64,000 nt of DNA from a virus, in the IMG/VR virus record IMGVR_UViG_3300027896_000001, positions 110,650-174,649 of that record; one strand, given 5' to 3'. Every line of letters starts with the position of its first letter. The stretch's first letter is position 1. The notes beneath the pieces were generated by a model, which saw only the letters and a program-made list of their open reading frames with translations, made no database searches and was not told where the DNA came from. A program made the translations under genes and the position numbers. Of this stretch, positions 5,087-53,342 are shown in pieces.

Positions 5087-5608
5087 ATGTTGGAAATTCT
5101 TACCCCACTTAATAAGTGCGAACGCGTATCTCGGCAGATCGCCCCTGCAACATTTGTTGCAAAACCGGGCGAATGGGCTCAGGTTGAGTCCGACGGTTCA
5201 CTGATCAATGTAGAGGCCGGCGTAAATGCAAAAATCAACAAACTCGTTATTGGCAGTGCATCATCGAACCAATACGAGTCTCATGACGTTGAGGTGGGGC
5301 GCATCACCTCGATGGAAAGCCATGGAATCCGCTGCAAGGTCGATACTGTTGGTTTTCACGATGTTGTTTCCCAGGGCGACGAACTCGTCGTTTCGAGCGC
5401 GTCGGATTCCCTTGGCAAACTGATGTCGGTCAACAGGGCAGCTTCGGGAACATACGAGGTTGTTGCAAGGGCAGAAGAAGTGAATCTCACAACCGGCTAT
5501 CTCATTTTCAGAACCGTGTCTCCGTATATGAAGGCCGTTTCTCACGCAAGTACGAGCGCGAGTGCTTCGGCCAGCCCGTCGGCAAGTGTGTCGGCGAGTC
5601 CTTCCTAG
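5087..5608 (+). CDS. Putative capsid cement/decoration protein with C-terminal Ser-Pro-Ala tail
   Basis: 173 residues. The first ~145 residues form a small beta-rich domain with the run KPGEWAQVESDGSL, then YESHDVEVGRIT and a GDELVVS strand, typical of capsid-stabilising beta-barrel proteins. The last ~25 residues are a low-complexity Ser/Ala/Pro tail. A paralogue at 8105-8821 shares the core domain (NKLVIGS, YESHD, MESHG) but has its low-complexity arm at the N-terminus. It sits immediately before the major capsid gene, as decoration genes often do. Role inferred from fold-like pattern and position. Confidence 0.6.
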   Translation: MLEILTPLNKCERVSRQIAPATFVAKPGEWAQVESDGSLINVEAGVNAKINKLVIGSASSNQYESHDVEVGRITSMESHGIRCKVDTVGFHDVVSQGDELVVSSASDSLGKLMSVNRAASGTYEVVARAEEVNLTTGYLIFRTVSPYMKAVSHASTSASASASPSASVSASPS

Positions 5609-5709: not shown

Positions 5710-6738
5710 ATGTTGCGAGATCTTTCTGCGGTCCAGTTTAACGAGGCCTTCCTCGAAAAAATTGCGACCATTGAAGGGCAGGCGCAACTTACAGAGGCCG
5801 GTCGTCAATACGTCAAGACCGAGCTTCTGGAAGCTGCGTTTTCGCGCGCGATAATTCCCCAGGAACCAGTCACGACATCTGATTGTCAGAGGAACATCAA
5901 CGACAATTCCCTGTACATCATTCGCGACATCGAACCCGAGGCAGCGGCCGTCGGCGTCGACAACCTGGGTGAGCCCAATGGCAAATACGTGAAGGGTGAA
6001 AGGTACATCATCCCGATCGTGAACTTTGCCACAAACCGGTTCCAGATCACCGTGGAAGACCTTCGTGCGTACCAGTACAAAATCACGAAGCGTATCGAGG
6101 ACAAATCGGTGCCAGTCCTCGAAAAATTGGAAGACAAGTTCTTCCTTCGTCTCGTCGGCGCCGCTGTTGGTGTTGCCTCTGCCGGTTCCCAAAAAGCCGT
6201 TGCATACGCGGCCGGCGACAACACTCTGGAAATTTCGACACGCGACATCGTCAAGATCAAGAACACTCTCGCGTCTGGCATCAATGGCAGCGATGCAAAG
6301 CGCAAAGAGGTCGGCTGCATTCTCATGTGCCAGGAAGCATTCGAAACCGCAGTCATTCTGCCGAGTGCCGGCGATGACTTCGGTAAGGACCGTGTTCTGA
6401 ATGGTATCTCTTCGGATACCCTCTTCGGAACAAAGGTCGTTCGGACAATCAAGAGCGATGTTCTGCCGCGCGGCCACATGTGGGCCTTCACGACCCCGGA
6501 CTTTTTCGGCCACAATTTCGCATTGGGCGATCCCAATTTCGAAATCAAGTCGAACTTCGGGCTCATCGAATGGCAGACGAAGGAATCAATCGGAATGGGT
6601 ATCGGGAACGCCCTTTCCGCAGCGCTTATGACTCTCAAGGGTTCCGTGAATCCGGGCGGGTCGACCCCTCTCGTGGTTACATCAGACGGAACAGTTCCTC
6701 AGGCAATTCTGGATTACTACGCTTCTCTAAAGGTGTAA
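5710..6738 (+). CDS. Major capsid protein, HK97-fold type (putative)
   Basis: 342 residues with strong AAAAGGAG upstream. It has an N-terminal helical arm with the EK-x-A motif (FLEKIATIEG), which may be removed in maturation. A central region (ERYIIPIVNFATNRFQITVEDL, then a long helix with ERIEDK-type charges) fits an E-loop and spine helix, and the C-terminal half is strand-rich. Length, position after protease, scaffold and cement genes, C-rich codon choice and a strong terminator just behind it all fit the major capsid protein. Long open frames on the opposite strand are by-products of codon bias. Confidence 0.75.
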   Translation: MLRDLSAVQFNEAFLEKIATIEGQAQLTEAGRQYVKTELLEAAFSRAIIPQEPVTTSDCQRNINDNSLYIIRDIEPEAAAVGVDNLGEPNGKYVKGERYIIPIVNFATNRFQITVEDLRAYQYKITKRIEDKSVPVLEKLEDKFFLRLVGAAVGVASAGSQKAVAYAAGDNTLEISTRDIVKIKNTLASGINGSDAKRKEVGCILMCQEAFETAVILPSAGDDFGKDRVLNGISSDTLFGTKVVRTIKSDVLPRGHMWAFTTPDFFGHNFALGDPNFEIKSNFGLIEWQTKESIGMGIGNALSAALMTLKGSVNPGGSTPLVVTSDGTVPQAILDYYASLKV

Positions 6739-8104: not shown

Positions 8105-8821
8105 ATGGCAGATTCACCGTCAATCAGCCCGTCAGCTTCTGAAAGCACATCGGTAAGTCCCTCAGGGTCAGCCAGCGCATCGGTAAGTCCCTCAGGGTCA
8201 GCCAGCGCATCAGTAAGCCCCTCAGGGTCAGCCAGCGCATCAGTAAGTCCCTCGGGGTCGGCCAGCGCATCAGTAAGTCCTTCCGGATCGGGAAGTCCTT
8301 CCGGATCAAAAAGCCCGTCCGCGTCACCAAGCGCTTCGCCGTCTGCGGCAATACCGGAAAAACCCATGCTCGAAATTTTAACACTGATGGAAAAGATCGA
8401 AAGGGTTTCCCGGTCGATAGAGTCAAGTTTTGTGGCCTACCCAGGACTCTGGGCGGTACTCAATAATGACGGCTCGATCGAAAACATCACAGAAGGGTCG
8501 AATGCGAAGGTTAATAAACTCGTTATTGGATCCAAGTCATCCAGTGTCTACGAGTCGCATGACACCGCGGTCGGAAGAATAACGACCATGGAAAGTCATG
8601 GCACAAGATGCAAAGTCAATTCCGGCGGATTCTACGGCAAAGTAAACCAGGGCGACAGGCTTGTGGTTTCGAGCTTTGCCAATTCACTCGGCAAGCTTGT
8701 ATCCGTTGAAGAAACCGCAGAAACAGGAGATCATGAAATAGTTGCGCGGTGCGAAGAGGTCGATCCAAACGGCGATTGGATCGTCTTCAGGACAATGTCG
8801 CCAACAATCGTTTCTCTTTGA
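8105..8821 (+). CDS. Second capsid cement-like protein with N-terminal Ser-Pro-Gly repeat arm
   Basis: 238 residues. Residues 1-80 are a Ser/Pro/Gly/Ala repeat; residues ~88-238 match the core domain of the protein at 5087-5608 (MLEILT, ERVSR, NKLVIGS, YESHD, RITTMESHG, GDRLVVSSF). The order of arm and domain is reversed relative to that paralogue. GC-rich codons like those of the capsid gene suggest high expression. It is likely a surface decoration protein with a long flexible arm. Confidence 0.6.
   Translation: MADSPSISPSASESTSVSPSGSASASVSPSGSASASVSPSGSASASVSPSGSASASVSPSGSGSPSGSKSPSASPSASPSAAIPEKPMLEILTLMEKIERVSRSIESSFVAYPGLWAVLNNDGSIENITEGSNAKVNKLVIGSKSSSVYESHDTAVGRITTMESHGTRCKVNSGGFYGKVNQGDRLVVSSFANSLGKLVSVEETAETGDHEIVARCEEVDPNGDWIVFRTMSPTIVSL
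8150..8280 (+). repeat. 30-bp tandem direct repeats coding a Ser-Pro-Gly-Ser arm
   Basis: Four consecutive 30-nt units start at 8150, 8180, 8210 and 8240, each reading TCRGTAAGYCCCTCRGGGTC plus RGCCAGCGCA with only a few base changes. The near-identity points to recent unit duplication, unlike the diversified Ser-Pro-Ala repeat in the giant fibre gene. Confidence 0.85.
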
Positions 8822-8905: not shown

Positions 8906-9670
8906 ATGCGTTTGACAATAGGTATGCCAAGTTATAATAATTTTTCTGAAGTCTGGTTTACCATTCAGGCTTTAAGAATGTATCATAACTTAAAAGATTG
9001 TGAAATACTTGTAGTCGATAATTTTGGTGAAAAAAACATGGAAAAATTTATAAAACAAAATGGTAAAGGAATAGTTAGATATGAAAAATTTGTAGATCGC
9101 GTAGGAACAAGTTGTGCTAAAAATAAGATATTCGAACTGGCAAAAGGCGAAATGGTTATTTGCATGGATTCTCATGTTTTACTTAAACCCGGGGCTCTTG
9201 ATAATATTCCTGTTACAGATGACTTGATCCATGGCCCATTAATATACGCCAGTACAAATTATTATTGTTGTGAATGGCTGCCGGTATGGCGCGGGAATAT
9301 GTGGGGAATATGGGGAAAAAGTGTTACAAAACTGCCAGACAAACCATTCGAAATATGGGGAATGGGGTGTGGATTTTTTTTAACAAAAAAAAGCAGTTGG
9401 CTTGGTTACAATAAAAACTTTAAAGGATTCGGAGGAGAACAAGGATATCTTCACGAAAAATACAGAAAAGCAGGAAGAAAAGTATGGTGCTATCCTCAGT
9501 TCGTATGGATGCACATGTTTGATAGAAAAATACCTTATCCATTAGATATGTCATTAAGAGTGAGGAATTACATTATAGGATTTCAAGAATTAGGGCTTGA
9601 TACCACTCCAATAAAACAGCATTACGGAGAAAAACTTTTTACAGAAGCAATGGCTAAAATAAATGGATAA
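8906..9670 (+). CDS. Family 2-type glycosyltransferase
   Basis: 254 residues. A Rossmann-like N-terminus (LTIGMPSYNN, then EILVVDN) and an acidic metal/nucleotide-sugar site DSH at 88-90 (VICMDSHV) mark a GT-A fold transferase. Downstream W-rich segments and EQGYLHEKYRKAG resemble the acceptor side of family 2 enzymes. First gene of the cassette, overlapping the next by 8 nt. Substrate unknown; the setting among Ser/Thr-rich virion genes suggests virion glycosylation, but cell-surface modification is also possible. Confidence 0.75.
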   Translation: MRLTIGMPSYNNFSEVWFTIQALRMYHNLKDCEILVVDNFGEKNMEKFIKQNGKGIVRYEKFVDRVGTSCAKNKIFELAKGEMVICMDSHVLLKPGALDNIPVTDDLIHGPLIYASTNYYCCEWLPVWRGNMWGIWGKSVTKLPDKPFEIWGMGCGFFLTKKSSWLGYNKNFKGFGGEQGYLHEKYRKAGRKVWCYPQFVWMHMFDRKIPYPLDMSLRVRNYIIGFQELGLDTTPIKQHYGEKLFTEAMAKING

Positions 9671-10394
9671 ATTAATAAGCGCGCTTTGCATTACTTATGG
9701 AAGGCCCAAATTGCTGGAAGAAGCAATTGAAAGCTTTCTCAGGCAGGATTATGCAAACAAAGAAATGGTCATTGTAAATGATCTTCCTGAACAGGAATTG
9801 GTTTTCGATCATCCTCGAATAAGAATTTTTAATCTTAAAAAACGGGTTGAAACAATAGGGGAAAAAAGAAATATCGCCGTTAAGCTGGCAATGGGAAGCA
9901 TCGTTATTTGCTGGGATGATGACGATATAAATCTTCCATGGCGGATGTCTCAGGTTATGAATGTATTTAATTCTGATAAAAACATTAAATATTTTAATTT
10001 AAAAACAAAATGGTTATGGAGAAAAAACAATCTATCATTTAAACAAAGTTTGTGTGTTGGATTGCCGGCAATAGATAAAAAAACTCTTTTATATATTGGT
10101 GGATATAATTCATTAATAAGGGGAGAAGATACCGATTTAAATAAAAGAATAGCATTCAATTTGTTGTCACAAAATATTAAATTAATAGCTTTTTCAAAAG
10201 AAGAATGCCCAATTATTTATCGACAACATACAGGGTATTATCATCTTTCTTCAGTAAGCCACAAACCTGATGCAATGAAAATTATAGAAGATTCTGTAAA
10301 ATCAAAACCAATTAGCGAGATAGTTGTTCTTAACCCTCATTGGGAACAGGACTGGTTGCAATTAACCAAGGAGGCGACATGTTATCAAAAATAA
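9663..10394 (+). CDS. Family 2-type glycosyltransferase
   Basis: 243 residues. It starts ISALCITYGRPKLLEEAIESF, the usual opening of family 2 enzymes, followed by KEMVIVND and the acidic cluster WDDDDI at 84-89. The C-terminal part has GEDTDLNKRIAF, matching the catalytic-base (ED) region. It overlaps the previous gene by 8 nt and the next by 16 nt, so the three are translationally coupled. Confidence 0.8.
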   Translation: MDKLISALCITYGRPKLLEEAIESFLRQDYANKEMVIVNDLPEQELVFDHPRIRIFNLKKRVETIGEKRNIAVKLAMGSIVICWDDDDINLPWRMSQVMNVFNSDKNIKYFNLKTKWLWRKNNLSFKQSLCVGLPAIDKKTLLYIGGYNSLIRGEDTDLNKRIAFNLLSQNIKLIAFSKEECPIIYRQHTGYYHLSSVSHKPDAMKIIEDSVKSKPISEIVVLNPHWEQDWLQLTKEATCYQK

Positions 10395-10960
10395 CACAAA
10401 ATTTTTTCTACAATGAATTTCGTCCAGCTGGTGCTCCTGTTACGTGGATGCCAATTTCTGATTATCAAAATATATTGATCACAATGCTGGCAAACAACCT
10501 GCAAATAGTACGGTCATCTATGCCTCCAGGGTCCACTATGACAATTTCATGTGGAGTAAGAGTTCTGTCAGATTTTAATCGTTTAGTAAGTCAGGGATAT
10601 CATCCGTCTCCTACGAGCGATCATTTTTGTGGAAATGCTGTGCCGGTAGATTCTATTTCAGATAAATTCAAAAGGTATGGTCCTGTATATTATTTTTCAG
10701 TAGGAGCCGCGGATATAATTCCAAACGGAATGGATAACGATTTATTATTCAGAATGGCAGTGCAAATGACATTAAGAGGAGTATGCAGATTCGGACAGAT
10801 AATTAATGAACAGGATATTAAAAAAGGCACAAAATGGGTCCACTTCTCAAATGATTATTCGAGTATATTCTCATCTGATATGGTTAAGTTTCTTAATAAA
10901 CAGCCTTTTTTAACAACAATCGATGGAGGACTTACTTATACGCCATATCTTCCGGTATAG
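10379..10960 (+). CDS. Peptidase M15-like (D-Ala-D-Ala carboxypeptidase fold) protein
   Basis: 193 residues. The start at 10379 is chosen because AAGGAGG lies just upstream. A later part resembles the zinc peptidase M15 family: SPTSDHFCGNAV (His82) and KWVHFS (His155) correspond to two zinc ligands. The usual Asp seven residues after the first His is replaced by Pro, with an Asp two positions later, so activity may be altered or lost. It may be a tail-associated murein peptidase or a structural derivative of one. Confidence 0.55.
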   Translation: MLSKITQNFFYNEFRPAGAPVTWMPISDYQNILITMLANNLQIVRSSMPPGSTMTISCGVRVLSDFNRLVSQGYHPSPTSDHFCGNAVPVDSISDKFKRYGPVYYFSVGAADIIPNGMDNDLLFRMAVQMTLRGVCRFGQIINEQDIKKGTKWVHFSNDYSSIFSSDMVKFLNKQPFLTTIDGGLTYTPYLPV

Positions 10961-11009
10961 ATTTTTACTCTGTTAATTTGTATAATTAAAATAAACGCTT
11001 GGATCAACT

Positions 11010-12581
11010 ATGCAATTCACATCTGTAGACGTTGTAAAAACAAAAGAAAATTTTTATTATATTGAATGGGGATTTGCTCCAACAACCACGACTCCAGTTC
11101 CAACAACAGAGGCCCCTACAACTCCAGAACCGTTGGTTACCACTACCCCAGAACCGCATCATCCAGGCGGATTGCCTACCACTACCACCATGCCCCCGCT
11201 GTTTGATACAACGACTACGCCTGCGCCGGAATCTCCATCAACATCTCCATCAAGCAGCGCATCATCATCTGCCAGCCCTTCTCCTCCTCCAGAATCAGTT
11301 GATGATTATAATTTCCAAATATGGTGGAGCAGGGATCCTATTTCAGGATTTCTTGCTGTTCAAGATGTTAATGGGGATCCAATTGTAATAGATGGCGCGG
11401 TAGGTCCGCTTTGTTATACGCATCAAATACGTCAATACGATTTTAATCAAGATAATTATTATAAAATTCTTGCTATAAAAAAAGTTGAATTAACTCAATT
11501 TTTCTCTGAAACTGTTTTTATCGGAATGTTCAGCGACGGCATTCATGAGGTAATGAAATACAATGAAGAACTTCTTTACCAGCATTATCAAGGCGAACCA
11601 TGTCTTATAATCAAAAGAAAAAGCTTTGGCGCGCGTTGCCCTGTATGCTGGTCTAAAGAACGCCAACAAATGATAAGATCTCATTGCGATACATGTAAGG
11701 GAACCGGATTTGTTACAGGATATTATCAAGCAATTAGAGAACAGGTTTCCTTTGATTCGGATCCTAAAAAATCTGATTCTCAAAAAGAATGGGAAAATGT
11801 ATATGACACAATAAGGGCAAGGTTATCAAATTATCCTTTAGTGAGGCCAAAGGATTTAATTGTAAATCTTGACAATAATAAAAGATTCGTTATCACTCAT
11901 GTTGAAACAACAAAGCTTCCAAAATTAAGCGAAAGCAAACAGGTACTTTCAAAACAAAATTATATTTTAAGTCAATTACTCACCCTCGAAGAACTTAATC
12001 CGGATGATAATGAATATTTCATAGATGTGGACCATATTCCTGAAGTTCCGCAAGGGGATGAAGGTGGAACAGGAAGCACTATTCCGTTTTTTAATGATCA
12101 TCTTCCGGTAACGGTTGATCCTCCATTATCAATTACAGACAACCATCAACATGTAGTTTTAAATTACAGTTCGGATGATTTTAAATTAATAAATGGAATA
12201 CTGGCTCTTAAAAACAGCACCGGATCGATAGGCACGGAAAGTTATATAGCCGCAGAGGTAATAGCGCCCGCTCTGAAAGTAGTTATTACAAACGGAGATG
12301 GAACAATATCTATTGCAGATTCTTCAGACAAAACGCAGGTTGATAAAGTTGTAGGAATAACATTGAGTGAAGCGGCTATGGGAGGATTGGTTGTTGTTCA
12401 AAAACTTGGAAAACTTGTGAATGTATCATGGAATTGGACAATAGGAAAAGGAATATTTTTTGATGATAATGGCAATTTAACCCAAACAGTTCCAGTAGGA
12501 GGTTATTGGATGAACATCGCAAAAGTGATAACTCCAACTATAATAGAGATTCTTTTACGACTTCCGGTAATACGGGTTTAG
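11010..12581 (+). CDS. Virion appendage protein with mucin-like linker and zinc ribbon
   Basis: 523 residues. After a ~25-residue N-terminus, residues ~25-97 are a Thr/Pro/Glu then Ser/Pro linker like a mucin stalk. A zinc-ribbon motif (CPVCW ... CDTCKGTGF) follows near residues 210-235. The C-terminal ~110 residues (DGTISIADSSDKTQVDKVVG through VSWNWTIGKGIFF and NLTQTVP) resemble a beta-rich trimer domain found at the ends of phage fibres or collar proteins. It sits inside the glycosyltransferase cassette, making it a natural substrate candidate. Exact virion position unknown. Confidence 0.55.
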   Translation: MQFTSVDVVKTKENFYYIEWGFAPTTTTPVPTTEAPTTPEPLVTTTPEPHHPGGLPTTTTMPPLFDTTTTPAPESPSTSPSSSASSSASPSPPPESVDDYNFQIWWSRDPISGFLAVQDVNGDPIVIDGAVGPLCYTHQIRQYDFNQDNYYKILAIKKVELTQFFSETVFIGMFSDGIHEVMKYNEELLYQHYQGEPCLIIKRKSFGARCPVCWSKERQQMIRSHCDTCKGTGFVTGYYQAIREQVSFDSDPKKSDSQKEWENVYDTIRARLSNYPLVRPKDLIVNLDNNKRFVITHVETTKLPKLSESKQVLSKQNYILSQLLTLEELNPDDNEYFIDVDHIPEVPQGDEGGTGSTIPFFNDHLPVTVDPPLSITDNHQHVVLNYSSDDFKLINGILALKNSTGSIGTESYIAAEVIAPALKVVITNGDGTISIADSSDKTQVDKVVGITLSEAAMGGLVVVQKLGKLVNVSWNWTIGKGIFFDDNGNLTQTVPVGGYWMNIAKVITPTIIEILLRLPVIRV

Positions 12582-12592
12582 GAGAGTGACAC

Positions 12593-13474
12593 ATGCCAAA
12601 AACCAGTGTTATCATACCATCCAGAAATGAAAGATTTCTACAAAAAACAATTGATGATATTCTTTCAAAAGCTACAAAAGATATTGAGGTCATAGCTGTT
12701 CTTGACGGCTATTGGCCAAATCCAGCATTAAAAGAACATAAAAATTTAATACTAATCCATGTAACAGATCCGAGGGGAATGAGGCCGGCAATCAATTCTG
12801 CCGCTCAAATAGCGCGTGGAAAATATTTAATGAAACTAGATGCTCATTGTATGGTCGATAAAGGGTTTGATGAAAAATTAATGGCGGACTGTGATGACAA
12901 CTGGATTGTCGTTCCAAGAAGATACAGTCTTGAGCCGGAAAAATGGGAAATAGCTAAAACTGGAAAAGCCCCTGTTGATTGTCATTATCTTTCTTATCCA
13001 TATCTGAAACCGGAAGAAATCGGAATGCATGGAGTCCCATGGACCGAAAGAGCTAAGGCAAGGATTGATATTTTAATAGACGAAGAAATGTCCTCTCAAG
13101 GTTCTTGCTGGTTCATGCGCAAAGATTATTTCTGGAAATTTGGCGGAATGAGCTGTGAGGGATATGGAAATTTTGTTCAAGAGGCTCAGGAGCTTGGATT
13201 GAGAGCGTGGCTATCTGATGGAAAAATGATGGTTAATAAAAAAACATGGTACGCGCATCTTCACAAGGGGAAAACATATGGAAGAGGATATTATATATCA
13301 CAACCTAAAATGGTTGCAGGCGCAATATATTGCGCAAATTTTTGGATGAGCAATAAATGGAAAGAAAGAAAACACGATATGGAATGGTTTATAAATAAAT
13401 TTTGGCCCGTTCCAACGTGGCCTGAAAACTGGAAAGAACTTCGATTTAATAAGGAAACAAATGAATACTCTTGA
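12593..13474 (+). CDS. Family 2-type glycosyltransferase (DAH type)
   Basis: 293 residues. It begins SVIIPSRNERFLQKTIDDI with EVIAVLDGYW, and has the acidic site LDAH at 82-85. The N-terminal half is clearly paralogous to residues 1-300 of the protein at 17269-18882 (shared VIAVLDGYWP, KLDAHC/KIDAHC, FD-KLMAD). GGAGAG precedes the start. It overlaps the following methyltransferase by 14 nt. Confidence 0.8.
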   Translation: MPKTSVIIPSRNERFLQKTIDDILSKATKDIEVIAVLDGYWPNPALKEHKNLILIHVTDPRGMRPAINSAAQIARGKYLMKLDAHCMVDKGFDEKLMADCDDNWIVVPRRYSLEPEKWEIAKTGKAPVDCHYLSYPYLKPEEIGMHGVPWTERAKARIDILIDEEMSSQGSCWFMRKDYFWKFGGMSCEGYGNFVQEAQELGLRAWLSDGKMMVNKKTWYAHLHKGKTYGRGYYISQPKMVAGAIYCANFWMSNKWKERKHDMEWFINKFWPVPTWPENWKELRFNKETNEYS

Positions 13475-14123
13475 TCGCTCAGAATGGGATAAAGGAAGGG
13501 TTGGAGAATTAGGGTTTTGGAGAAATTTTCTTAATAATAAATCTAAAAAATATTTAATTAATAGACTTCTTCATCCTAGACTTCATTTTATGCTGGGGGA
13601 TAAAAAGGAAGTCAGTATCGCCGATATTGGCGCCGGAGCGATATCTATTATAGGAAACACTTATGAAGGCGTCAAACTCAATATAACTCCTTCTGATTTT
13701 TTAGCTGACGAATACAAACAATTATTAAACGAATTAAATATCCATCCTTTAATTTATACTGAAAAACAGGACATGGAAAAACTAACTTATGACAATAATA
13801 CTTTTGATATAGTTTATTGTCAAAATGCTTTAGATCATTGTTTTGATCCTAAAAAAGCAATATTGGAAATGATACGAATTTGCAAATCTAATGGATGGAT
13901 ATATTTTCGGCATTTTCCGCATGTGGCAAAACATCATAGATATCGTAATTTTCATCAATGGAATATTGACAAAACAAATAATAATGATTGCGTTGTCTGG
14001 AACAGACAGGAACAATTTTTATTATCAAGTTTGGCAAGTGGTTTTAATACTGAAACAGAAACAGGACGCATAGGGATGGTTGTAACAACAGGTAAAAAAG
14101 AAAATCTAAAGGAGGTGTCGTGA
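13461..14123 (+). CDS. SAM-dependent methyltransferase, class I
   Basis: 220 residues. A glycine loop (VSIADIGAGA, ~51-60) and the post-I block FDIVYCQNALDHCFDPKKA fit a class I fold of the methyltransferase-11 type. It lies between glycosyltransferases and overlaps both neighbours, so it probably O-methylates a sugar product of the cassette. Substrate not predictable from sequence. Confidence 0.75.
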   Translation: MNTLDRSEWDKGRVGELGFWRNFLNNKSKKYLINRLLHPRLHFMLGDKKEVSIADIGAGAISIIGNTYEGVKLNITPSDFLADEYKQLLNELNIHPLIYTEKQDMEKLTYDNNTFDIVYCQNALDHCFDPKKAILEMIRICKSNGWIYFRHFPHVAKHHRYRNFHQWNIDKTNNNDCVVWNRQEQFLLSSLASGFNTETETGRIGMVVTTGKKENLKEVS

Positions 14124-14737
14124 ATTTAATTGAATGCTTGTCGCAAAAATATTCTTTTGATTTGTCTCAAAAATCACCTATACAGCTTCCATTAACGCGA
14201 AACGATCTTACAAAAATATTTAAGGAATTGGGATTTAAAACAGGAGTTGAGATAGGCGTTCAAGAAGGAATTTATTCCGAAATTATATGCCAAAACAATC
14301 CAGAAGTATCTTTGTTTTGTGTTGATCCATGGAAAGCTTATCGTCGATATCGGGATTTTGTAAGTCAAGAAAGACTTGATAAATTTTATGAAACAGCGAA
14401 AAAGAGATTAGAACCTTATAACTGTACATTTATAAAAAAATTTAGCCTGGATGCGGCTAAAGATTTTGCAGATAAAAGCCTAGATTTCGGTTATATAGAC
14501 GGAAATCATGAATTCAGATATGTAGTAGACGATACCGATGAATGGATAAGAAAAATAAAAAAAGGCGGTATCATGGCTGGGCATGATTACAAACGATCAA
14601 AAGGCGATGCTCCATATCATGTAGTTGATGCTATTTCTGCTTATACTTATTCACATAAAGTGAAACCGTGGTTTATTACAACAGAAACAGATCATGATTT
14701 ACCTAGGTCTTTTTTCTGGGAGAAACAATGGATTTAA
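14120..14737 (+). CDS. SAM-dependent methyltransferase, class I (methyltransf_24-like)
   Basis: 205 residues with a GTG start after GGAGGTGTC. Motif I is VEIGVQEG (~43-50), then LFCVDPW; a DFGYIDGNHEF block and IMAGHDYK follow, typical of small sugar or peptide methyltransferases. Overlaps both neighbours, so cotranslated with the cassette. Confidence 0.75.
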   Translation: MNLIECLSQKYSFDLSQKSPIQLPLTRNDLTKIFKELGFKTGVEIGVQEGIYSEIICQNNPEVSLFCVDPWKAYRRYRDFVSQERLDKFYETAKKRLEPYNCTFIKKFSLDAAKDFADKSLDFGYIDGNHEFRYVVDDTDEWIRKIKKGGIMAGHDYKRSKGDAPYHVVDAISAYTYSHKVKPWFITTETDHDLPRSFFWEKQWI

Positions 14738-15423
14738 CAATATTATTTTACACATCAAATTATATAAACGAATCCTTCGCCAAGGAAATAAGGGATCAGT
14801 TAATAAGAGCTTCCGAAGGAATTCCTATAATAAGTATTTCTCAAAAACCAATGGATTTCGGAGAAAACATATGTGTTGGAGATATTAGCAGATCTCATCT
14901 TAATATTTATAGACAAATTTTAATAGGAGCAAAAGCAGCCACAACGGAGTATGTTGCATTGGCTGAAGATGATGTATTGTACTCTCCAAGCCACTTTACT
15001 TCATTTCGTCCAGACGGAGATACATTTGCATATAATTTAAATAAATGGAGTATTTTTACATGGGTAAATCCTCCAACATTTTCTTATATACCGCGAATGG
15101 TTATTAATGCATTAATAGCCCCAAGAAAACTTCTTGTTGAAGCTTTAACAGAAAGATTTACAAAATGGCCTGATGATACAAAAACACCTGTTAAATATTG
15201 GGGAGATTTAGGTCGTTATGAAAATTATCTTCATGTTACAGTTAGAAAAACAACAACTTTTAATTCTTCTCAATGTAATATTGTGTTTTCGCATACAGAT
15301 GCGTATGGATATCTTGGATTAGGAAATAGAAAAAAAATGGGAGATCAAAGAGTAACAGAATTAGACGGTTGGGGAACCGCATCGGATATAATAAAAATCT
15401 TCAAGGAAAGAAACCATGAATAA
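14728..15423 (+). CDS. GT-A-like glycosyltransferase domain protein
   Basis: 231 residues. A central EYVALAEDDVLY motif (EDD at 80-82) resembles the nucleotide-sugar/metal site of GT-A enzymes. The whole protein is paralogous to the C-terminal half of the 537-residue enzyme at 17269-18882 (shared KPMDFG/KPIEFG, NIV, TEYVALAEDD/AEIIYLCEHD, SHF). This is therefore a stand-alone version of that domain. Confidence 0.65.
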   Translation: MDLTILFYTSNYINESFAKEIRDQLIRASEGIPIISISQKPMDFGENICVGDISRSHLNIYRQILIGAKAATTEYVALAEDDVLYSPSHFTSFRPDGDTFAYNLNKWSIFTWVNPPTFSYIPRMVINALIAPRKLLVEALTERFTKWPDDTKTPVKYWGDLGRYENYLHVTVRKTTTFNSSQCNIVFSHTDAYGYLGLGNRKKMGDQRVTELDGWGTASDIIKIFKERNHE

Positions 15424-15949
15424 TATAGAAGATATAATATTTACAAATAAAGGTAAATGGCTCATGAAAATGAGCGAACGGTTAATGATATGCGGAATGG
15501 CTTCATTACTACATCCTGCCAGTATTTTAGAACTTGGGGTTTATCTTGGAAAATGTTCTGAGCAACTTTCAAAATTAACACCTATAGTTTATTGTGTCGA
15601 CCCAATGAGGCATGAAGAATTAGCATTACCTTCAAATTGTTATTTTATACAATTAACAAGCGATGAGTTTTTCAAGTGTGTTGCTAAAAACAATACATAT
15701 GATTTGATTATTGTCGATGCGGATCATACAGAGGAAAATGCGTACAGGGATTTAAAAAATTCTATTCAATATGGAAAGTACATTTTAATGCATGATAGCG
15801 CGAATCCTGAGTGCAGGCAAGGATACAAAAAGGCCATACGTGAATGCGGGGATAAAATAAAATTTAAAAATCTCGATTTGCTACCATGTTCATATGTTTC
15901 CACAAAAAATGTTCAATGGGGCGGATTAGGAATAGTAGTAACAAAATGA
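15416..15949 (+). CDS. Small SAM-dependent methyltransferase
   Basis: 177 residues. ILELGVYLGKC (motif I), then YCVDPM and YDLIIVDADHTEENAY, ending ILMHDSA, match the same small class I type as the protein at 14120-14737. Overlaps the previous gene by 8 nt and the next by 4 nt (ATGA). Confidence 0.75.
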   Translation: MNNIEDIIFTNKGKWLMKMSERLMICGMASLLHPASILELGVYLGKCSEQLSKLTPIVYCVDPMRHEELALPSNCYFIQLTSDEFFKCVAKNNTYDLIIVDADHTEENAYRDLKNSIQYGKYILMHDSANPECRQGYKKAIRECGDKIKFKNLDLLPCSYVSTKNVQWGGLGIVVTK

Positions 15950-16587
15950 TACCTAAAATTATACATACAGCATGGACATCTAATGATTCTTTTAAAAAAA
16001 AGTATCATAAGTTCAGAGAGTCATGGATAAGATTCAATCCAGATTGGTCGTTTTATTTTTGGGATCAGCATAATTTTCCATGGGGGAAATTTGACAATAT
16101 ATCAAAAGAGTTATTATCGTCAAACAAGGTTCATTACGTTGTTAAATCAGATGTAATCAGGTATGAAATATTAAGACTGTATGGGGGAATCTATGTCGAC
16201 TGTGATGTTGAATGTTTAAAATCGTTTGAACCATTATTAATATACGAATCGTTTGTAGGATATGAAAGATATCCTGATATTATAAGTAATTGTATTATCG
16301 GTGTTGAAAAAGACAACCCAATTATAATAGATATTTCCAGAACATTAAATGAAAAAATTCTAAATCATCGCGATTACAGCAATAAACATCCTCATGTTTA
16401 CGGGGTAGGTTTCGCCGGCAGTAAATTAAAAAATCTATCTATGGTTCTTCCTCAAAACGCGTTCTGTCCATTTTTAGGAGAAAGTCGTCCTAAAAATGTC
16501 AATTCTAAAAATTATCCAGATGCCTATGCTATTCATCATTTTTCAGGAATGGATGATGATGGATGGGTTAAAAACAGAGAGGTATGA
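15946..16587 (+). CDS. Family 32-type (OCH1-like) glycosyltransferase
   Basis: 213 residues. The start at 15946 gives IPKIIHTAWTS, the standard opening of the DXD sugar-binding family (Gly_transf_sug). The acidic site is YVDCDVE (85-87) after RYEILRLYGGI. A longer upstream frame exists but lacks the conserved start. Such enzymes transfer hexoses to glycans or proteins. Confidence 0.85.
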   Translation: MIPKIIHTAWTSNDSFKKKYHKFRESWIRFNPDWSFYFWDQHNFPWGKFDNISKELLSSNKVHYVVKSDVIRYEILRLYGGIYVDCDVECLKSFEPLLIYESFVGYERYPDIISNCIIGVEKDNPIIIDISRTLNEKILNHRDYSNKHPHVYGVGFAGSKLKNLSMVLPQNAFCPFLGESRPKNVNSKNYPDAYAIHHFSGMDDDGWVKNREV

Positions 16588-16590
16588 TTC

Positions 16591-17253
16591 ATGAAAGTTG
16601 CTTTGATATCTGCTAATCTTGGAAAATTCTGCAACCATAATGAATGGGAAAAACAGGAAATAAATCCTGATATCGAATTATCGATATTTAGATTGGATGA
16701 TAATAATTTTCCTCCCAGAGATAAATCTCTTACTTCAAGGATGCAGGCGAAAATACCCAAAGTATTTGGATGGCAGATGTTTCCAGGATTTGATTATTAC
16801 ATATGGATAGATGCGCGCTTCGAGGTAAAAAAAGGATTTGTACAATGGATGGTTGATCAAAATAAAAATTTTGATTGTTCGTTCTTTACTCATCCATGGA
16901 GACATTCGATAAAAGAAGAAGCCGACATGATGAATATTGCATTAAAATCAAAATTTCATAATCATTATGATTATATTCAATCAAGATATACTGGAGAATT
17001 TATAGATGAACAACTAGAAATAATTTTCAAAGACAAATCTTATAAAGACAATTACCTTCTTGCGGCGACAACTTTTATTTATAAAAATAACGATGTCATG
17101 AAAAACATATTATCAGAATGGTGGCTTCACATTTCAAGATACTGCATCATGGATCAGTTTATTCTTCCTTATTTATTGAGACAATATAAATGCAATCTTA
17201 ACATTATTCAAGACGATGTTTTTCATGCTAAACATGCTAAATACATCAAATGA
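16591..17253 (+). CDS. Putative hexosyltransferase, TOD1/MUCI70 (DUF616)-like
   Basis: 220 residues. The block GWQMFPGFDYYIWIDARFEV (Asp74) and the later FFTHPWRHSIKEEADMM resemble DUF616-type glycosyltransferases. No overlap with neighbours but only 3 nt from the upstream gene. Family call is from motif resemblance only. Confidence 0.55.
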   Translation: MKVALISANLGKFCNHNEWEKQEINPDIELSIFRLDDNNFPPRDKSLTSRMQAKIPKVFGWQMFPGFDYYIWIDARFEVKKGFVQWMVDQNKNFDCSFFTHPWRHSIKEEADMMNIALKSKFHNHYDYIQSRYTGEFIDEQLEIIFKDKSYKDNYLLAATTFIYKNNDVMKNILSEWWLHISRYCIMDQFILPYLLRQYKCNLNIIQDDVFHAKHAKYIK

Positions 17254-17268
17254 AAGGACATCAAAATC

Positions 17269-18882
17269 ATGGACCTGTCAATAGTAATTCCTGCCCGTAA
17301 TGAAGAATTTTTGCAACAGACAATTGATTCTATTGTAAAAGGAATCAAAGCTGATACAGAAGTAATTGCCGTTCTTGATGGGTATTGGCCGGTAGGGGGA
17401 ATTAAAGATCATCCGAGAGTAAGGCTTATTCACCATTCTGAATCAATAGGACAAAGAGCCGCCACCAATGAAGGGGTAAGATTAAGCGAAGCAAAATATA
17501 TAATGAAGATTGATGCGCATTGCGCCATCGATGAGGGTTTCGATGTAAAATTAATGGCTGATATTCAACATGATTGGACCGTTATCCCAAGGATGTACAA
17601 CCTTCATGTGTTCGACTGGAAATGTCAAAAATGCGGAAATAAAACTTATCAGGGCCCAAAGCCAATAAAATGCGAAAAATGCGATAATAAAACTGAATTT
17701 GAAAGAATAATCGTCTGGACTCCACGCTGGAATAGAATGTCGGATTTTGCCAGGTTCGACAGCACTCTTCATTTTCAATACTGGGGAGAGTACAAGCGTC
17801 GCCCTGAGGCGCAAGGCGACATATGCGATACCATGTGTCAGATAGGCGCATGCTGGATGATGGAAAGAAACAGATATTGGGAAATAGGAGGACTTGATGA
17901 GAATCATGGATCTTGGGGACAAATGGGTGTGGAAATTTCCTGTAAATCATGGCTATCAGGAGGAAGGCAAGTAGTAAATAAAAAAACGTGGTTCAGTCAT
18001 CTTTTCAGAACACAGCCCGGTTTTGGATTTCCTTATCCCAACCCAGGAGTAAATAAAGCAAGAGAATATTCAAGACAATTATGGATGGAAAATAAATGGG
18101 ACAAAGCAATACATAAACTTCCATGGTTAATAAAAAAATTTGCCCCGGTTCCTGATTGGCCAAGCGAAACCGATAAAAAAATATCAAAAGGCGTAGTGTA
18201 TTATACCGACAATCTTTGCGATCCAATGATAAGAGATGTTGTTCAAAAAAATCTTAAACAACGTTGTAATGGTTTTGATGTAGTATCCGTGTCTCTTAAG
18301 CCAATTGAATTTGGAAGGAATATTGTTCTTCCTCTTGAGCGTGGAATCCTTACAATGTTCAAACAAATATTGGCAGGGCTGGAAACCAATACTGCTGAAA
18401 TAATTTATTTATGTGAACACGATGTTATTTATCATGAAAGTCATTTTGATTTTATTCCACCAAGAAACGATACTTATTATTATAATGAGAATACATGGAA
18501 GGTCGACGCTACAACAGGACAAGCTTTATTTTATTATTGTAAACAAACATCAGGACTTTGTGCTTATCGCACTCTTCTCATAGAACATTATAAAAAACGT
18601 ATTGCAAGAATGGAAAAAGAAGGAAGGTATGAAAGAAGTGTTGGTTTTGAACCTGGAACTCATAAATTTCCGCGCGGCATTGATGAACACGGGGCTGAGA
18701 AATATTTTTCTGAATTACCAAATATAGATATAAGACATACGACTAATTTGACAAAAAACCGTTGGAGTCAGGATGAATTTCGAAACAAAAATTCATGTCT
18801 TGGATGGAAAATGTCGGATGAGGTTCCGGGGTGGGGAAAATCAAAAGGAAGGTTCAAAGACTTTTTACTGGAGGTGTTATGA
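17269..18882 (+). CDS. Two-domain glycosyltransferase with zinc-ribbon insert
   Basis: 537 residues. Residues 1-~300 are a family 2 domain (LSIVIPARNEEFLQQTID, VIAVLDGYW, IDAH at 81-84). A zinc ribbon (CQKCGNK ... CEKCDNK) is inserted near residues 118-140. Residues ~305-537 are a second GT-A-like domain with EHDVIY, paralogous to the stand-alone protein at 14728-15423. Both halves thus exist separately in the same cassette (12593-13474 and 14728-15423), indicating fusion or fission by duplication. It overlaps the next start by ATGA. Confidence 0.75.
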   Translation: MDLSIVIPARNEEFLQQTIDSIVKGIKADTEVIAVLDGYWPVGGIKDHPRVRLIHHSESIGQRAATNEGVRLSEAKYIMKIDAHCAIDEGFDVKLMADIQHDWTVIPRMYNLHVFDWKCQKCGNKTYQGPKPIKCEKCDNKTEFERIIVWTPRWNRMSDFARFDSTLHFQYWGEYKRRPEAQGDICDTMCQIGACWMMERNRYWEIGGLDENHGSWGQMGVEISCKSWLSGGRQVVNKKTWFSHLFRTQPGFGFPYPNPGVNKAREYSRQLWMENKWDKAIHKLPWLIKKFAPVPDWPSETDKKISKGVVYYTDNLCDPMIRDVVQKNLKQRCNGFDVVSVSLKPIEFGRNIVLPLERGILTMFKQILAGLETNTAEIIYLCEHDVIYHESHFDFIPPRNDTYYYNENTWKVDATTGQALFYYCKQTSGLCAYRTLLIEHYKKRIARMEKEGRYERSVGFEPGTHKFPRGIDEHGAEKYFSELPNIDIRHTTNLTKNRWSQDEFRNKNSCLGWKMSDEVPGWGKSKGRFKDFLLEVL

Positions 18883-19361
18883 GTTTTGTAGTTGTATTCA
18901 GTAAAGCAACCGGTAGAATACGTTCGATTTTTGTTCCTGATGATGATGAACAAATAAAAAATCTTAAATATTTGGACGGAGAAGATCATGTTATTTTAGA
19001 TGATAAAGATAAACTTCCACTTCCTGAACTTCAGGAATTAATTAATAAACAAACAGGAATTATCCCAAAAGACGACAGATATGCGGTAGTAGATGCGGCA
19101 GGAGAAGTAAAAGCTGTAATAATTGCCGATCCGTTATGTGGAGATGAAATAAAAGATCATGAATTAATTACTTCAACAGAAGCTGAGGTAGGACACACTT
19201 GGGATAAAGATGCCCATGTATTTGTTCCTCCAGTAAAGGCGGCAACAACAACTCCTGCGCCAACAACTTCTGTTCCAACAACTCCTGCCCCAACAACCAA
19301 AGACCCTTCAATTAAAGATGATTTAATAGAGGATTTTGTCCCTTCAGCGGGACCAGAATAA
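18879..19361 (+). CDS. Small virion-type protein with Thr-Pro C-terminal tail
   Basis: 160 residues from the ATG at 18879, chosen for the GGAGG site 8 nt upstream and the ATGA overlap. Residues 1-118 look globular with a beta-rich N-terminus (SFVVVFSKATGRIRSIFVP); residues ~119-145 are a Thr/Pro/Ala tail of mucin type. Placed just before the giant fibre gene, it may be a fibre adaptor or chaperone. Unknown family. Confidence 0.6.
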   Translation: MSFVVVFSKATGRIRSIFVPDDDEQIKNLKYLDGEDHVILDDKDKLPLPELQELINKQTGIIPKDDRYAVVDAAGEVKAVIIADPLCGDEIKDHELITSTEAEVGHTWDKDAHVFVPPVKAATTTPAPTTSVPTTPAPTTKDPSIKDDLIEDFVPSAGPE

Positions 19362-19392: not shown

Positions 19393-22300
19393 ATGGCATG
19401 GTATGCATACATATTGTCTGGCACCTCTTGGGCTGGTGTTGACACAGATGGCAGCAACATTACTGTTGAGTGTATTGGTGGTGGTGGCGGCGGAACATCA
19501 AGCACGACTGTTAATGATGGTGGTGGGGGTGGCGAATATCGTTCATCAGTAGTGGCATATACATCAGGTTCTACTATAAATGGAATTCAAATCGGACAAG
19601 GTGGAACTGGAGGAACTACTGGAGGAAATGGCACTCAAACTAAATGGAATACAAATGTTATAATTGCTGATAATGGAGATGGCGCAGCAGCTGGTGGGGC
19701 TGGAGGTTCGGGAGGAACAGGAACTACAGGACGAAATGGCGGCAGCGCAACAGGACCTGGTGGATATGCAGGAGGATCAGGTGGAGGTGGTGCTGGAGGG
19801 CCGGCAGCTGCGGGACAACCAGCTGGATCTCGTACTGGCGGTGGTTGGCAAAAAGGAGGTACAGGTGGTGGTGGTGCTGGAAATGGTGCAGCGCAAACTA
19901 CCAATTCAAGTTCAGCATCAGGAACAGATGGTGGAGATGGGCCTGGAGGAACAGGTCATGGAACCGGAGCAACTTCAAATGTCGCGCCAGGAGCAGCATC
20001 ATTAGGTGGTGGCGGAGGTGGAAGTTATTATAGCGCATCTGCTCCTCATTATGCCGGCGGAGACGGTTCAACAGCAAATACTTGGGATACCGAATATGGG
20101 CCTGGCGGCGGTGGTGGCGGTGGTGGCGGTTTATGTAACGGTGGTAATGGTGGAAATTATGGTGGTGGTGGCGCAGACTCTGGATATCGTCAAGGTACTG
20201 AAACAGGAGGAAACGGCGCTCAAGGTATTATCGTCGTTACTTATAAAAAATCAAGCGCATCTGCTTCAGTTTCTCCATCAGCATCAAGAAGTCCTTCCGC
20301 TTCAGTTTCTCCATCTGCAAGCGTATCAGCTTCAATAAGCCCGTCTGCTTCTGCGTCTGCATCTGTTAGTCCTTCAGCCAGCGCAAGCGCCTCTATAAGT
20401 CCAAGCGCATCAAGAAGTCCTTCAGCTTCAGTTTCTCCGTCTGCCAGTGCATCAGCATCTATTAGCCCTTCAGCTTCAATAAGTCCGTCTGCATCTGTAT
20501 CTGCATCTGTTAGTCCTTCAGCCAGTGCGTCTGCATCTATTAGTCCGTCTGCTTCCGTATCTGCTTCAATAAGTCCGTCAGCATCAAGAAGTCCTTCAGC
20601 TTCAGTTTCTCCGTCTGCATCTGTGTCGGCTTCAGTTTCTCCTTCAGCAAGCGCATCAGCGTCTATAAGCCCATCTGCTAGTGCGAGCGCTTCTGTAAGT
20701 CCAAGTGCTTCTATTAGCCCGTCAGCATCAATCAGTCCTTCTGAAAGCGCTTCTGAATCTGTAAGTCCATCAGAATCTATAAGCCCATCAGCGAGTGTAA
20801 GCCCTTCTCCACCACCTCCAGTAACTGTTTTTATCACTTCAGGAACAGTATGGAATGAAGAAACAGATGAATCTGATATTGATGTTGAATGTATAGGAGG
20901 CGGAGGAGGTGGCGCCGGAGGTGGTGGAGAATATAGAAAAAGCACTATATCTTATAAATCAGGTTCTAATTCTATTATTCAGATAGGACAAGGTGGAGGT
21001 CCTACACTTGATGGTACGGATACAAAATTTATAGGAGATTTTGAAGGAATAGGAGAAACACCAAGGTATTGGAATTGTATTACTGTTGCGCCTAATGGCG
21101 ATGTATATGCTAATGAATTTGGAGATATTTATAAACAAACAGGCGGGGTTGGCCCTTTTGTTGCTTTAGGACAAACAACTAGACTTTGGGAAGCAATGGC
21201 TGTTGCTGCTAATGGTGATGTTTATGTTGCTGTAATTAATGATGATATTTATATACAAACTGGAGGTATTGGTAATTTTGTTGGATTAGGCCAAGGAAAT
21301 AAACAATGGGCAGGAATGACTATCGCTCCTAATGGAGATATTTATACTGTTGAAATTGGTGGTGATATTTATAAACGCACAGGCGGTGTTGGTAATTTTA
21401 TTGCACAAGGACAAACATCTCGGTCATGGCAGGGAATCGCTGCTGCTCCTAATGGCGATATTTATGCAACAGATGCTGGTGGTGATATTTATAAAAGAAC
21501 TAATGGCGTAGGCGATTTTATTGCATTAGAACAAGAATCAAGATCATGGTCAGCTATAACCGCTACCCCAAATGGAGATATTTATGCTCTTGTAATTTTT
21601 GATGATGTTTATAAACAAACTGGAGGGGTTGGAGATTTTCTTCCGCAACATTGGTCGCAAGGTTCTGTATTTTTAGCTTCTGATCTTAATGGAATTTTAT
21701 ACGCTACTCTTTTTACCTTCATATCTCCTGTTGATATATATAAACAGAAAGTAATAATAGCTAAAGCCGGTCATGGATCTTCATCAGATAGGGCAGGAGG
21801 AACAAATGGTATAGGTGATCTTGGATATGATGGTGGCGCAGCCGGTTCTAATGATAATGCTGGCGGTGGTGGCGCTGGAGGGCCTAATGGTATTGGCGCT
21901 AAAGGCGGAAATGGCAGCGCAAATGGAGGAGGAGGTGGTGGTGGAGCTGGAGGAGGATCGACTGGAAATAATGGAAGCAATCCATCAGGTGGTGATGGAG
22001 GAAATAATTATTTAAGTTCAGGTCATGGAAATGGAGGAAATCTTTCTGGAGATCCTGGCGACAACGGATCAGACGGTGGTGGCGCTGGTGGCGGCGCAAT
22101 TAATGGAAAAGGTGGAAACGGTGGAAATGGTATAGATTGGACAGCAGAATATGGCGCTGGTGGCGGCGGAGGTGGTGGAGGAAATAATGCAAACGGTGGT
22201 AACGGCGGAATTTATGGAGGTGGCGGAGGCGGTACAAATAATGGAACCGCAGGTACTGGTGGTCAAGGAATAATTGCAATAACATACCGTCCCAAACCTT

Positions 22301-52945: not shown

Positions 52946-53230
52946 TTATCTGCGGTTGCTTCCCTGGTATTCTTTTTTGGGACGTTCGCGGGCTTCGTTG
53001 ACAGTAAGCGCTCTGCCCGCCACTTCTTTTCCGTTCAGCCCATCGGCAGCAGATTCGGCGTCTGCTATCTTTTCGAACTCCACAAAGCCGAACCCTTTGC
53101 TCTTGCCGCTTTCGCGATCCGTTATTACTTTGGCCGACTTCACGGTCCCAAAGGATGAGAACAACGAAGACAGACCTGCATCATCTACGCTATAGGGAAG
53201 ATTCCCCACATACAATTTTGGCTTATCCAT
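52946..53230 (-). CDS. RRM-domain RNA-binding protein
   Basis: About 94 residues from the second ATG (53230), which has the better spacing to AAAGGAG; the first ATG is two codons earlier. Nearly the whole protein is one RRM: RNP2 KLYVGNLPY and RNP1 KGFGFVEF, with the usual beta-alpha-beta pattern and a short basic tail (RPKKEYQGSNRR). Bacterial and cyanobacterial RRM proteins bind single-stranded RNA. Codons are C-rich, suggesting strong expression. It could bind the numerous structured RNAs nearby, but that is inference. Confidence 0.9.
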   Translation of the reverse strand: MDKPKLYVGNLPYSVDDAGLSSLFSSFGTVKSAKVITDRESGKSKGFGFVEFEKIADAESAADGLNGKEVAGRALTVNEARERPKKEYQGSNRR

Positions 53231-53342
53231 TGACATTTCTCCTTTTAAATGATTGACAAAAACAGGTGAATTAAATTATTGTTTGGTTCTACTGATATCA
53301 ATTCCTCCATTCTTCAGCAGGTTAAAGATTTATATAAAATAA

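What the first reader, a model, noticed from the sequence alone, without database searches (positions are those of the whole stretch)
8906..18882. Phage-encoded glycosylation cassette beside mucin-like virion proteins
About six glycosyltransferase-type genes and three SAM methyltransferases overlap or abut inside the structural module. They are interrupted by a mucin-like (Thr/Pro then Ser/Pro) appendage protein and followed by a giant Ser-Pro-Ala fibre. At least six virion-type proteins here carry Ser/Thr/Pro/Ala segments (5087, 8105, 11010, 18879, 19393 and the sheath at 29076). Motifs are seen directly; that the cassette decorates these segments with methylated glycans is inference. It would be a self-sufficient virion-glycosylation system.
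Basis: partly seen in the sequence, partly recalled or inferred. Interest (0 to 1): 0.85.

Follow-up and report, generated by a model that had tools for sequence, protein, structure and literature searches.

The report
Phage enzymes that sugar-coat virions
This uncultivated bacterial virus carries a set of sugar-attaching and methylating enzymes, led by ones resembling the animal enzymes that start mucin glycosylation, next to structural proteins with long serine-proline tails; the two features occur together across many unrelated viruses and some ultra-small bacteria, so the virus most likely coats its own particle with sugars.

Summary
At 8906-18882, inside a tailed-phage structural module, lie seven glycosyltransferase-type genes and three methyltransferases. 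Ser/Thr/Pro/Ala segments occur in six nearby proteins and three more elsewhere in the record. The interpretation gains strong but indirect support. (1) Two enzymes, 12593 and the N-domain of 17269, match eukaryotic polypeptide GalNAc-transferases (GT27) best, by profile (E 7e-11) and by fold (pLDDT 93.8; first 48 PDB hits), and keep the DxH and C-His metal ligands. (2) In IMG/VR, contigs found by a Ser-Pro-Ser-Ala pattern carry GT2 genes in 32/38 cases (at least 15 kb), against 6/43 random contigs. Loci found by the enzyme carry such repeats in 57/80 cases, against 0/80 random loci. Nearly all lack the window's virion genes. (3) Capsid-gene relatives without the cassette, four of them 126-208 kb, lack the segments; the putative sheath lacks exactly its 50-residue Ser/Pro insert. 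Limits: only about two state changes on the capsid tree; 'self-sufficient' is not shown; methylated glycans are inference; the same enzyme-plus-repeat module sits beside TatC in Patescibacteria chromosomes, so it is not virion-specific. Phage virion glycosylation is already known; this looks like a new, widespread variant.

The parts
5087..5608 (+). Protein encoded just upstream of the MCP, with a 31-aa S/A/P tail; proposed glycan acceptor (head decoration is a guess from gene order)
   Evidence: Segment. Relatives without the cassette keep one untailed copy; relatives with it often have extra copies with S/P, T/P or Ser-rich tails. No PDB or PHROG match.
5710..6738 (+). Major capsid protein
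   Evidence: 28.6% identity to annotated MCP of Salmonella phage Arash; 35 relatives in IMG/VR
8105..8821 (+). Paralogue of 5087 with an 88-aa Ser-Pro-Gly/Ala N-terminal segment; proposed glycan acceptor
8906..9670 (+). GT2-type glycosyltransferase with a DSH motif where most GT2 enzymes have DxD
   Evidence: PF00535 3.3e-11; motif read; nearest PDB chain a GlcNAc-transferase, E 4.5e-05
9663..10394 (+). GT2-type glycosyltransferase, DDDD motif
   Evidence: PF00535 5.7e-13
10376..10960 (+). Conserved protein of the structural module (longest ORF starts at 10340); not an enzyme of the cassette as far as seen
   Evidence: Also kept in relatives without the cassette; no family match
11010..12581 (+). 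Appendage-type protein with T/P then S/P segment near its N-terminus; proposed glycan acceptor
   Evidence: Segment; the orthologue in L051 (cassette-free record G009) starts MEFAFVEVVKTKENWFYIEWDMTPGPGEAIDDY, without the segment
12593..13474 (+). Glycosyltransferase resembling polypeptide GalNAc-transferases (DAH motif, C-terminal His)
   Evidence: Alignment A4, of which it is a row: PDB best matches ppGalNAc-T over the whole domain, E 7.2e-11; PF00535 8.5e-16
13461..14123 (+). SAM methyltransferase
   Evidence: Methyltransf_11 2.4e-11
14120..14737 (+). SAM methyltransferase
   Evidence: Methyltransf_24 2.1e-16; relatives in 65 of 80 enzyme-sampled viral loci
14728..15423 (+). Glycosyltransferase-like protein (EDD motif), same family as the C-terminal domain of 17269
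   Evidence: relatives in 71 of 80 enzyme-sampled loci; no Pfam or PDB sequence match
15416..15949 (+). SAM methyltransferase
   Evidence: Methyltransf_24 6.2e-06, just above cut-off
15946..16587 (+). GT32-type glycosyltransferase (longest ORF starts at 15886)
   Evidence: PF04488 1.1e-13
16591..17253 (+). TOD1/MUCI70-type glycosyltransferase-like protein
   Evidence: PF04765 6.5e-07
17269..18882 (+). Two-domain glycosyltransferase: N-terminal domain resembling polypeptide GalNAc-transferases, with an inserted four-Cys ribbon, and a C-terminal domain of the 14728 family; candidate initiating enzyme
   Evidence: Profile and fold matches to ppGalNAc-T; D82, H84 and H244 invariant in 77 of 77 aligned sequences; rubredoxin-like Cys motif
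18876..19361 (+). Small virion-type protein with T/P repeats near the C-terminus (longest ORF starts at 18831)
   Evidence: 15-base tandem repeat 19246-19297
19393..27264 (+). Giant 2623-aa Gly-rich fibre-type protein with Ser at every second residue over about 1,740 aa; main proposed glycan acceptor
   Evidence: codon analysis
29076..31826 (+). Putative tail sheath with a roughly 50-residue Ser/Pro insert
   Evidence: Alignment with relatives shows a clean insertion absent from cassette-free relatives

Best explanation
The cassette is a phage-encoded O-glycosylation system for the phage's own structural proteins. Enzymes resembling polypeptide GalNAc-transferases (17269, 12593, perhaps 8906) attach a first sugar directly to Ser/Thr in exposed, extended Ser-Pro-Ser-Ala and Thr-Pro segments, in the host cytoplasm before assembly. 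The remaining glycosyltransferases lengthen the chain and the three methyltransferases cap or modify the sugars. Ser at every second residue would give a dense brush of glycans on the giant fibre, on tailed copies of the MCP-adjacent protein, on the 11010 appendage and on the putative sheath insert. SHOWN: genes, segments, co-occurrence, joint absence in relatives, predicted fold and metal-ligand residues. INFERRED: that the enzymes act on these segments, which enzyme starts the chain, the sugars used, the methyl groups, and the benefit (shielding, adhesion or mimicry of a host coat). Sugar donors are probably taken largely from the host.
For: 1) Sampling by repeat: of contigs with a genuine SPSASxSPSAS repeat, 39/57 have a GT2 gene (32/38 at 15 kb or more; 23/24 at 30 kb or more), against 0/20 contigs matching only in a non-genuine frame and 6/43 random contigs of at least 15 kb (3 above Pfam's cut-off). 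2) Sampling by enzyme: 57/80 loci of the 17269 family have strict S- or T-rich repeats within 8 kb, against 0/80 random viral loci; in genome contigs 18/34 against 0/39 generic GT2 loci. 3) 76/80 enzyme-sampled and 80/80 repeat-sampled loci share no detectable virion protein with the window, so this is not one lineage. Named PHROG hits of the cassette's neighbours are mostly virion genes (tape measure, portal, capsid, protease, adaptor). 4) Capsid-gene relatives without GT2 (records of 186, 164, 208 and 126 kb among them) have no segment; those with it all have one. The putative sheath lacks just the insert. 5) ppGalNAc-T-like profile, fold and metal ligands; DxH replaces DxD in GT27 and GT60, both polypeptide Ser/Thr O-glycosyltransferases (PMC7185993). 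Generic GT2 relatives mostly show DxD. 6) In the giant fibre Ser holds 767 of 1543 positions using TCN and AGY codons in ordinary proportions, with codon identity at lag 2 no higher than chance: selection on the protein, not DNA slippage.
Against: No biochemistry or glycoproteomics. On the MCP tree the two traits need only two changes, so the within-lineage test has one or two independent contrasts. Some enzyme loci show no repeat (23/80, many truncated). Adjacent genes may simply travel together, though segments also appear in proteins outside the cassette. The ppGalNAc-T likeness has low sequence identity (about 20%) and lacks the lectin domain; acceptor specificity cannot be read from fold. 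PF00535 does not find every GT family, so 'GT-less' means GT2-less.
Confidence: 0.78

Rival explanations
1. The cassette modifies the host's surface polysaccharide (serotype conversion, superinfection exclusion), and its place next to repeat proteins is incidental.
For: Weak PHROG similarity of 8906 to GtrB-like O-antigen conversion (1.7e-05); glycosyltransferases of phages are often of this kind (background knowledge).
Against: The ORFs read as soluble single- or two-domain enzymes, with no flippase or membrane partner seen among them. The enzyme family tracks Ser-rich repeats in unrelated phages, and repeats vanish with it in relatives.
Confidence: 0.05
2. The enzymes glycosylate modified bases of the phage DNA, as in T-even phages.
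For: Viral glycosyltransferases of this use are known (Pyle 2024, cited in PMC12619734); one methyltransferase has a PHROG label 'DNA methyltransferase'.
Against: No thymidylate-synthase-type gene in the record, with a control that rang; no Tet/JBP hit, though that control was silent. Cassette lies in the structural module and tracks repeats.
Confidence: 0.03
3. The unit is a mobile Patescibacteria (CPR) cell-surface module, enzymes plus a giant Ser-Pro surface protein, picked up by phages mainly to imitate or replace the host's coat; glycosylation of virion proteins is secondary.
For: Same enzymes beside giant Ser-Pro proteins and TatC in CPR chromosomes.
Against: On the enzyme tree the CPR sequences form a group within viral diversity rather than the reverse (root not inferred). 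In the window phage, segments sit in capsid- and tail-type proteins, not only in the giant protein.
Confidence: 0.08
4. The Ser/Pro segments are unglycosylated flexible spacers and the association is hitchhiking of neighbouring genes.
For: Repeat protein and enzymes are often adjacent, so linkage alone could keep them together.
Against: Segments also lie in proteins apart from the cassette, including about 70 kb away and in the putative sheath, and in the sampled lineage only where the cassette exists.
Confidence: 0.06

Closest known systems
Virion glycosylation of mycobacteriophages (Freeman et al. 2023, as cited in PMC12619734 and PMC12691614)
   Same: Phage-encoded glycosyltransferases are linked to glycans on capsid and tail proteins; glycans hinder antibody recognition.
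   Different: According to PMC12619734 the mycobacteriophage glycans are at C-termini of capsid and tail-tube subunits; here the proposed acceptors are alternating Ser-Pro/Thr-Pro segments, with seven glycosyltransferase-type and three methyltransferase genes. The original paper was not available to me.
Eukaryotic polypeptide GalNAc-transferases (GT27), mucin-type O-glycosylation
   Same: Best profile and fold match for 12593 and the 17269 N-domain; DxH motif, C-His and Gal/GalNAc-T-type motif; Ser/Thr/Pro-rich acceptors.
   Different: No lectin domain or Golgi anchor; inserted four-Cys ribbon; second GT-like domain; about 20% identity; donor and linkage unknown.
Self-encoded glycosylation of giant viruses (chloroviruses, mimivirus; PMC9614988)
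   Same: Virus-encoded machinery for glycans of structural proteins, including methylated sugars.
   Different: Eukaryotic viruses; different enzymes and, in chloroviruses, N-glycans on a capsid protein; they also encode sugar-nucleotide synthesis.
Serine-rich repeat glycoproteins of Gram-positive bacteria with their Gtf enzymes (own knowledge; staphylococcal Ser-Asp repeat proteins with SdgA/SdgB, PMC3794999)
   Same: Ser-dense repeats glycosylated by dedicated glycosyltransferases.
   Different: Cell-wall adhesins; GT-B type enzymes (own knowledge); no virion link.

Membership tests
GT27 polypeptide GalNAc-transferase | GT-A catalytic domain closest to ppGalNAc-Ts | tested here: met
   Profile E 7.2e-11 over positions 3-259; AlphaFold2 model (pLDDT 93.8), ppGalNAc-Ts are the first 48 PDB hits, best 1.8e-14
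GT27 polypeptide GalNAc-transferase | DxH motif and C-terminal His as metal ligands | tested here: met
   D82, H84, H244 in 77 of 77 aligned sequences; H244 aligns with the His of the ppGalNAc-T 'GHVFR' stretch
GT27 polypeptide GalNAc-transferase | C-terminal ricin-type lectin domain | tested here: not met
   C-terminal domain belongs to the 14728 family; no lectin match
[quoted passage not shown]
   needs an enzyme assay
Phage-encoded virion glycosylation | Glycosyltransferase genes in the phage genome, in or near the structural module | tested here: met
   neighbours in unrelated phages mostly virion genes
Phage-encoded virion glycosylation | Glycan present on virion proteins | not testable with these tools
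   uncultivated phage; needs mass spectrometry
Phage-encoded virion glycosylation | Putative acceptor segments present only with the enzymes in related phages | tested here: inconclusive
   Perfect match among records whose state could be scored, but only two changes on the tree
Self-sufficient glycosylation system | Genes for making the sugar donors | tested here: not met
   No NTP_transferase; one epimerase/dehydratase-like gene only; not all families tested
O-antigen conversion (Gtr) cassette | GtrB-like glycosyltransferase with membrane segments plus flippase and membrane Gtr | tested here: inconclusive
   Only a weak GtrB-like PHROG hit for 8906; no membrane partner noticed among the ORFs, no dedicated topology prediction run

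The most novel reading that the evidence does not exclude
A prokaryotic counterpart of mucin-type O-glycosylation: a DxH, polypeptide-GalNAc-transferase-like initiating enzyme dedicated to proteins with Ser at every second residue, spread as an enzyme-plus-acceptor module through many unrelated environmental phages and Patescibacteria, and used by phages to coat capsid and tail proteins.
Probability: 0.55. Interest if true: 0.88.

Novelty: new variant of a known kind. Interest (0 to 1): 0.76.

Why it matters
Glycosylation of phage particles has been shown in a few cultured phages; here a distinct enzyme family and its likely acceptor repeats are linked across many environmental phage contigs (473 relatives of the enzyme in one scan). 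It gives a simple sequence signature for phages likely to carry glycan coats, a candidate prokaryotic mucin-type O-glycosyltransferase for glycobiology, and a link between phages and Patescibacteria surfaces that can be tested.

Tried and rejected
First AlphaFold run on 17269 with six sequences gave a poor model (pLDDT 49) and was replaced by a 68-sequence run. A degenerate Ser-codon pattern had too few fixed bases. MCP-tree test of correlated change: only 1-2 independent pairs, too few for significance. My first S/T/P/A detector missed Ser-Lys-Glu-rich tails in L128 and L034, found later by reading tails; L034 has a different cassette with a sulfotransferase. In the enzyme tree, L334 and L337 entered as mis-framed fragments and are disregarded. 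The genuine/artefact split of the pattern hits was made by reading translations; 19 of 20 artefacts were judged before the GT result, L212 (9 kb) after, without effect on the bins of 15 kb and above. The 1537-aa antisense ORF at 22263-26876 is a by-product of the repeat. DNA modification and O-antigen conversion were considered and judged unlikely. Literature searches found no description of this module, but only open-licence papers were searchable.
Full report
WHAT IS THERE. The window is the last 64 kb of a 174,649-base uncultivated virus record. Between the MCP (5710) and the putative sheath (29076) lie four GT2-type, one GT32-type and one TOD1/MUCI70-type glycosyltransferase genes. Gene 14728 has no Pfam match but belongs to the family of the C-terminal domain of 17269. 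Three SAM methyltransferases complete the set. The set is split by gene 10376 and the appendage protein 11010. S/T/P/A segments occur in 5087, 8105, 11010, 18876, 19393 and 29076, and in three fibre-like proteins elsewhere in the record.

REPEATS ARE PROTEIN FEATURES. In the largest repeat (22282-26910) Ser occupies 767 of 1543 codons, with both TCN and AGY codons in the proportions of other genes. At lag 2, identical residues share a codon only 18% of the time, about what random draws give. So the alternating Ser pattern has been kept by selection on the protein while the DNA diverged.

RELATIVES WITH THE SAME CAPSID GENE. The MCP finds 35, then 41 IMG/VR loci. Records with GT2 genes carry the segments. 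The records without GT2 that cover the region (186, 164, 208, 126, 100, 85 and 40 kb among them) have none over the whole record, apart from one 30-aa chance-like stretch in a 62-aa frame of the 40-kb record. In the putative sheath the segment is a clean insert. The MCP-adjacent protein exists as one plain copy in cassette-free phages; most cassette phages have extra copies with S/P, T/P or Ser-rich tails. L034 is telling: it has a different cassette (GT-like genes, methyltransferases, a sulfotransferase) and a 134-residue Ser-rich tail. L128, cut off inside its cassette, has a Ser-rich tail as well. Against over-reading: on the MCP tree the states change only twice, so this is not statistically independent evidence.

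INDEPENDENT SAMPLINGS. Scanning IMG/VR for SPSASxSPSAS, without regard to enzymes, gave 57 genuine and 20 artefact records; GT2 genes were in 39/57 and 0/20 (32/38 and 0/11 at 15 kb or more). Random contigs of at least 15 kb: 6/43 at E 0.001, 3/43 above Pfam's cut-off. Scanning by the enzyme family instead found 473 relatives; of the best 80 loci, 57 have strict repeats within 8 kb, against 0/80 random loci. Seventy-six of these 80 and all repeat-sampled loci share no detectable virion gene with the window. Named PHROG hits among 99 neighbouring proteins are mostly virion genes.

ENZYME IDENTITY. Profiles of 12593/17269 match polypeptide GalNAc-transferases best in the PDB, in the joint profile over the whole domain. 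A confident model of 17269 (pLDDT 93.8) finds ppGalNAc-Ts as its first 48 PDB hits. The metal ligands D-x-H and the C-terminal His are invariant in 77/77 aligned sequences. A survey of GT-A enzymes reports DxH in place of DxD in GT27 and GT60, both polypeptide Ser/Thr O-glycosyltransferases (PMC7185993). Generic GT2 relatives mostly have DxD. The lectin domain of GT27 is missing, so this is 'works like', not 'is a member of'.

BEYOND PHAGES. In genome contigs the closest relatives are almost all from Patescibacteria; 18 of 34 loci have strict repeats nearby, against 0/39 for generic GT2 loci. Some lie in phage-like regions (L336, L340). Others (L343, L356, L358) lie beside TatC-type genes in long cellular contigs, one a complete chromosome (TatC confirmed by Pfam for L343 and L356, read by eye for L358). 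On the enzyme tree the cellular sequences group inside viral diversity, root unknown. The module is therefore an enzyme-plus-acceptor pair shared by phages and these bacteria.

ALTERNATIVES AND SELF-SUFFICIENCY. No thymidylate-synthase-type gene was found, the Tet/JBP search was uninformative, and the enzymes sit among virion genes; DNA glycosylation is unlikely. Host-surface conversion does not explain the link with repeats. No sugar nucleotidyltransferase was found and only one epimerase/dehydratase-like gene, so donors probably come largely from the host.

VERDICT. Observation confirmed; interpretation supported in its core and overstated in 'self-sufficient'. Virion glycosylation by phages is known; the enzyme type, the acceptor design and the breadth of the association appear new within the open-licence papers I could search.

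Noticed in passing
window 37083-37482 (-): tmRNA gene in the phage (Rfam RF00023, 137 bits), with tRNA-Pro, tRNA-Gln and tRNA-Met nearby.
   Followed up: no
L088:2564-3514 (-), record bases 2564-3514: NDP-sugar epimerase/dehydratase-like gene in the same virus record (PF01370, 181 bits), possible donor supply.
   Followed up: partly
L108:3208-8705: A capsid-gene relative (L034/G023) has a different cassette at the same place, including a sulfotransferase (PF03567, 1.4e-17) and a cupin, with a 134-residue Ser-rich tail on its MCP-adjacent protein.
   Followed up: partly
L343, L356, L358: Patescibacteria contigs carry the same enzymes plus giant Ser-Pro proteins directly beside TatC, suggesting a cell-surface use.
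   Followed up: partly
window 17617-17706: A four-Cys, rubredoxin-like ribbon is inserted in the glycosyltransferase domain of 17269; three of its Cys are invariant in 68 aligned relatives.
   Followed up: no
window 22263-26876 (-): 1537-aa antisense ORF, a by-product of the Ser/Pro/Ala codon composition.
   Followed up: yes
window 62946-63200 (-): Acyl-carrier-protein-like ORF in the phage, judged by eye.
   Followed up: no
window 52946-53236 (-): RRM-type RNA-binding protein-like ORF in the phage, judged by eye.
   Followed up: no
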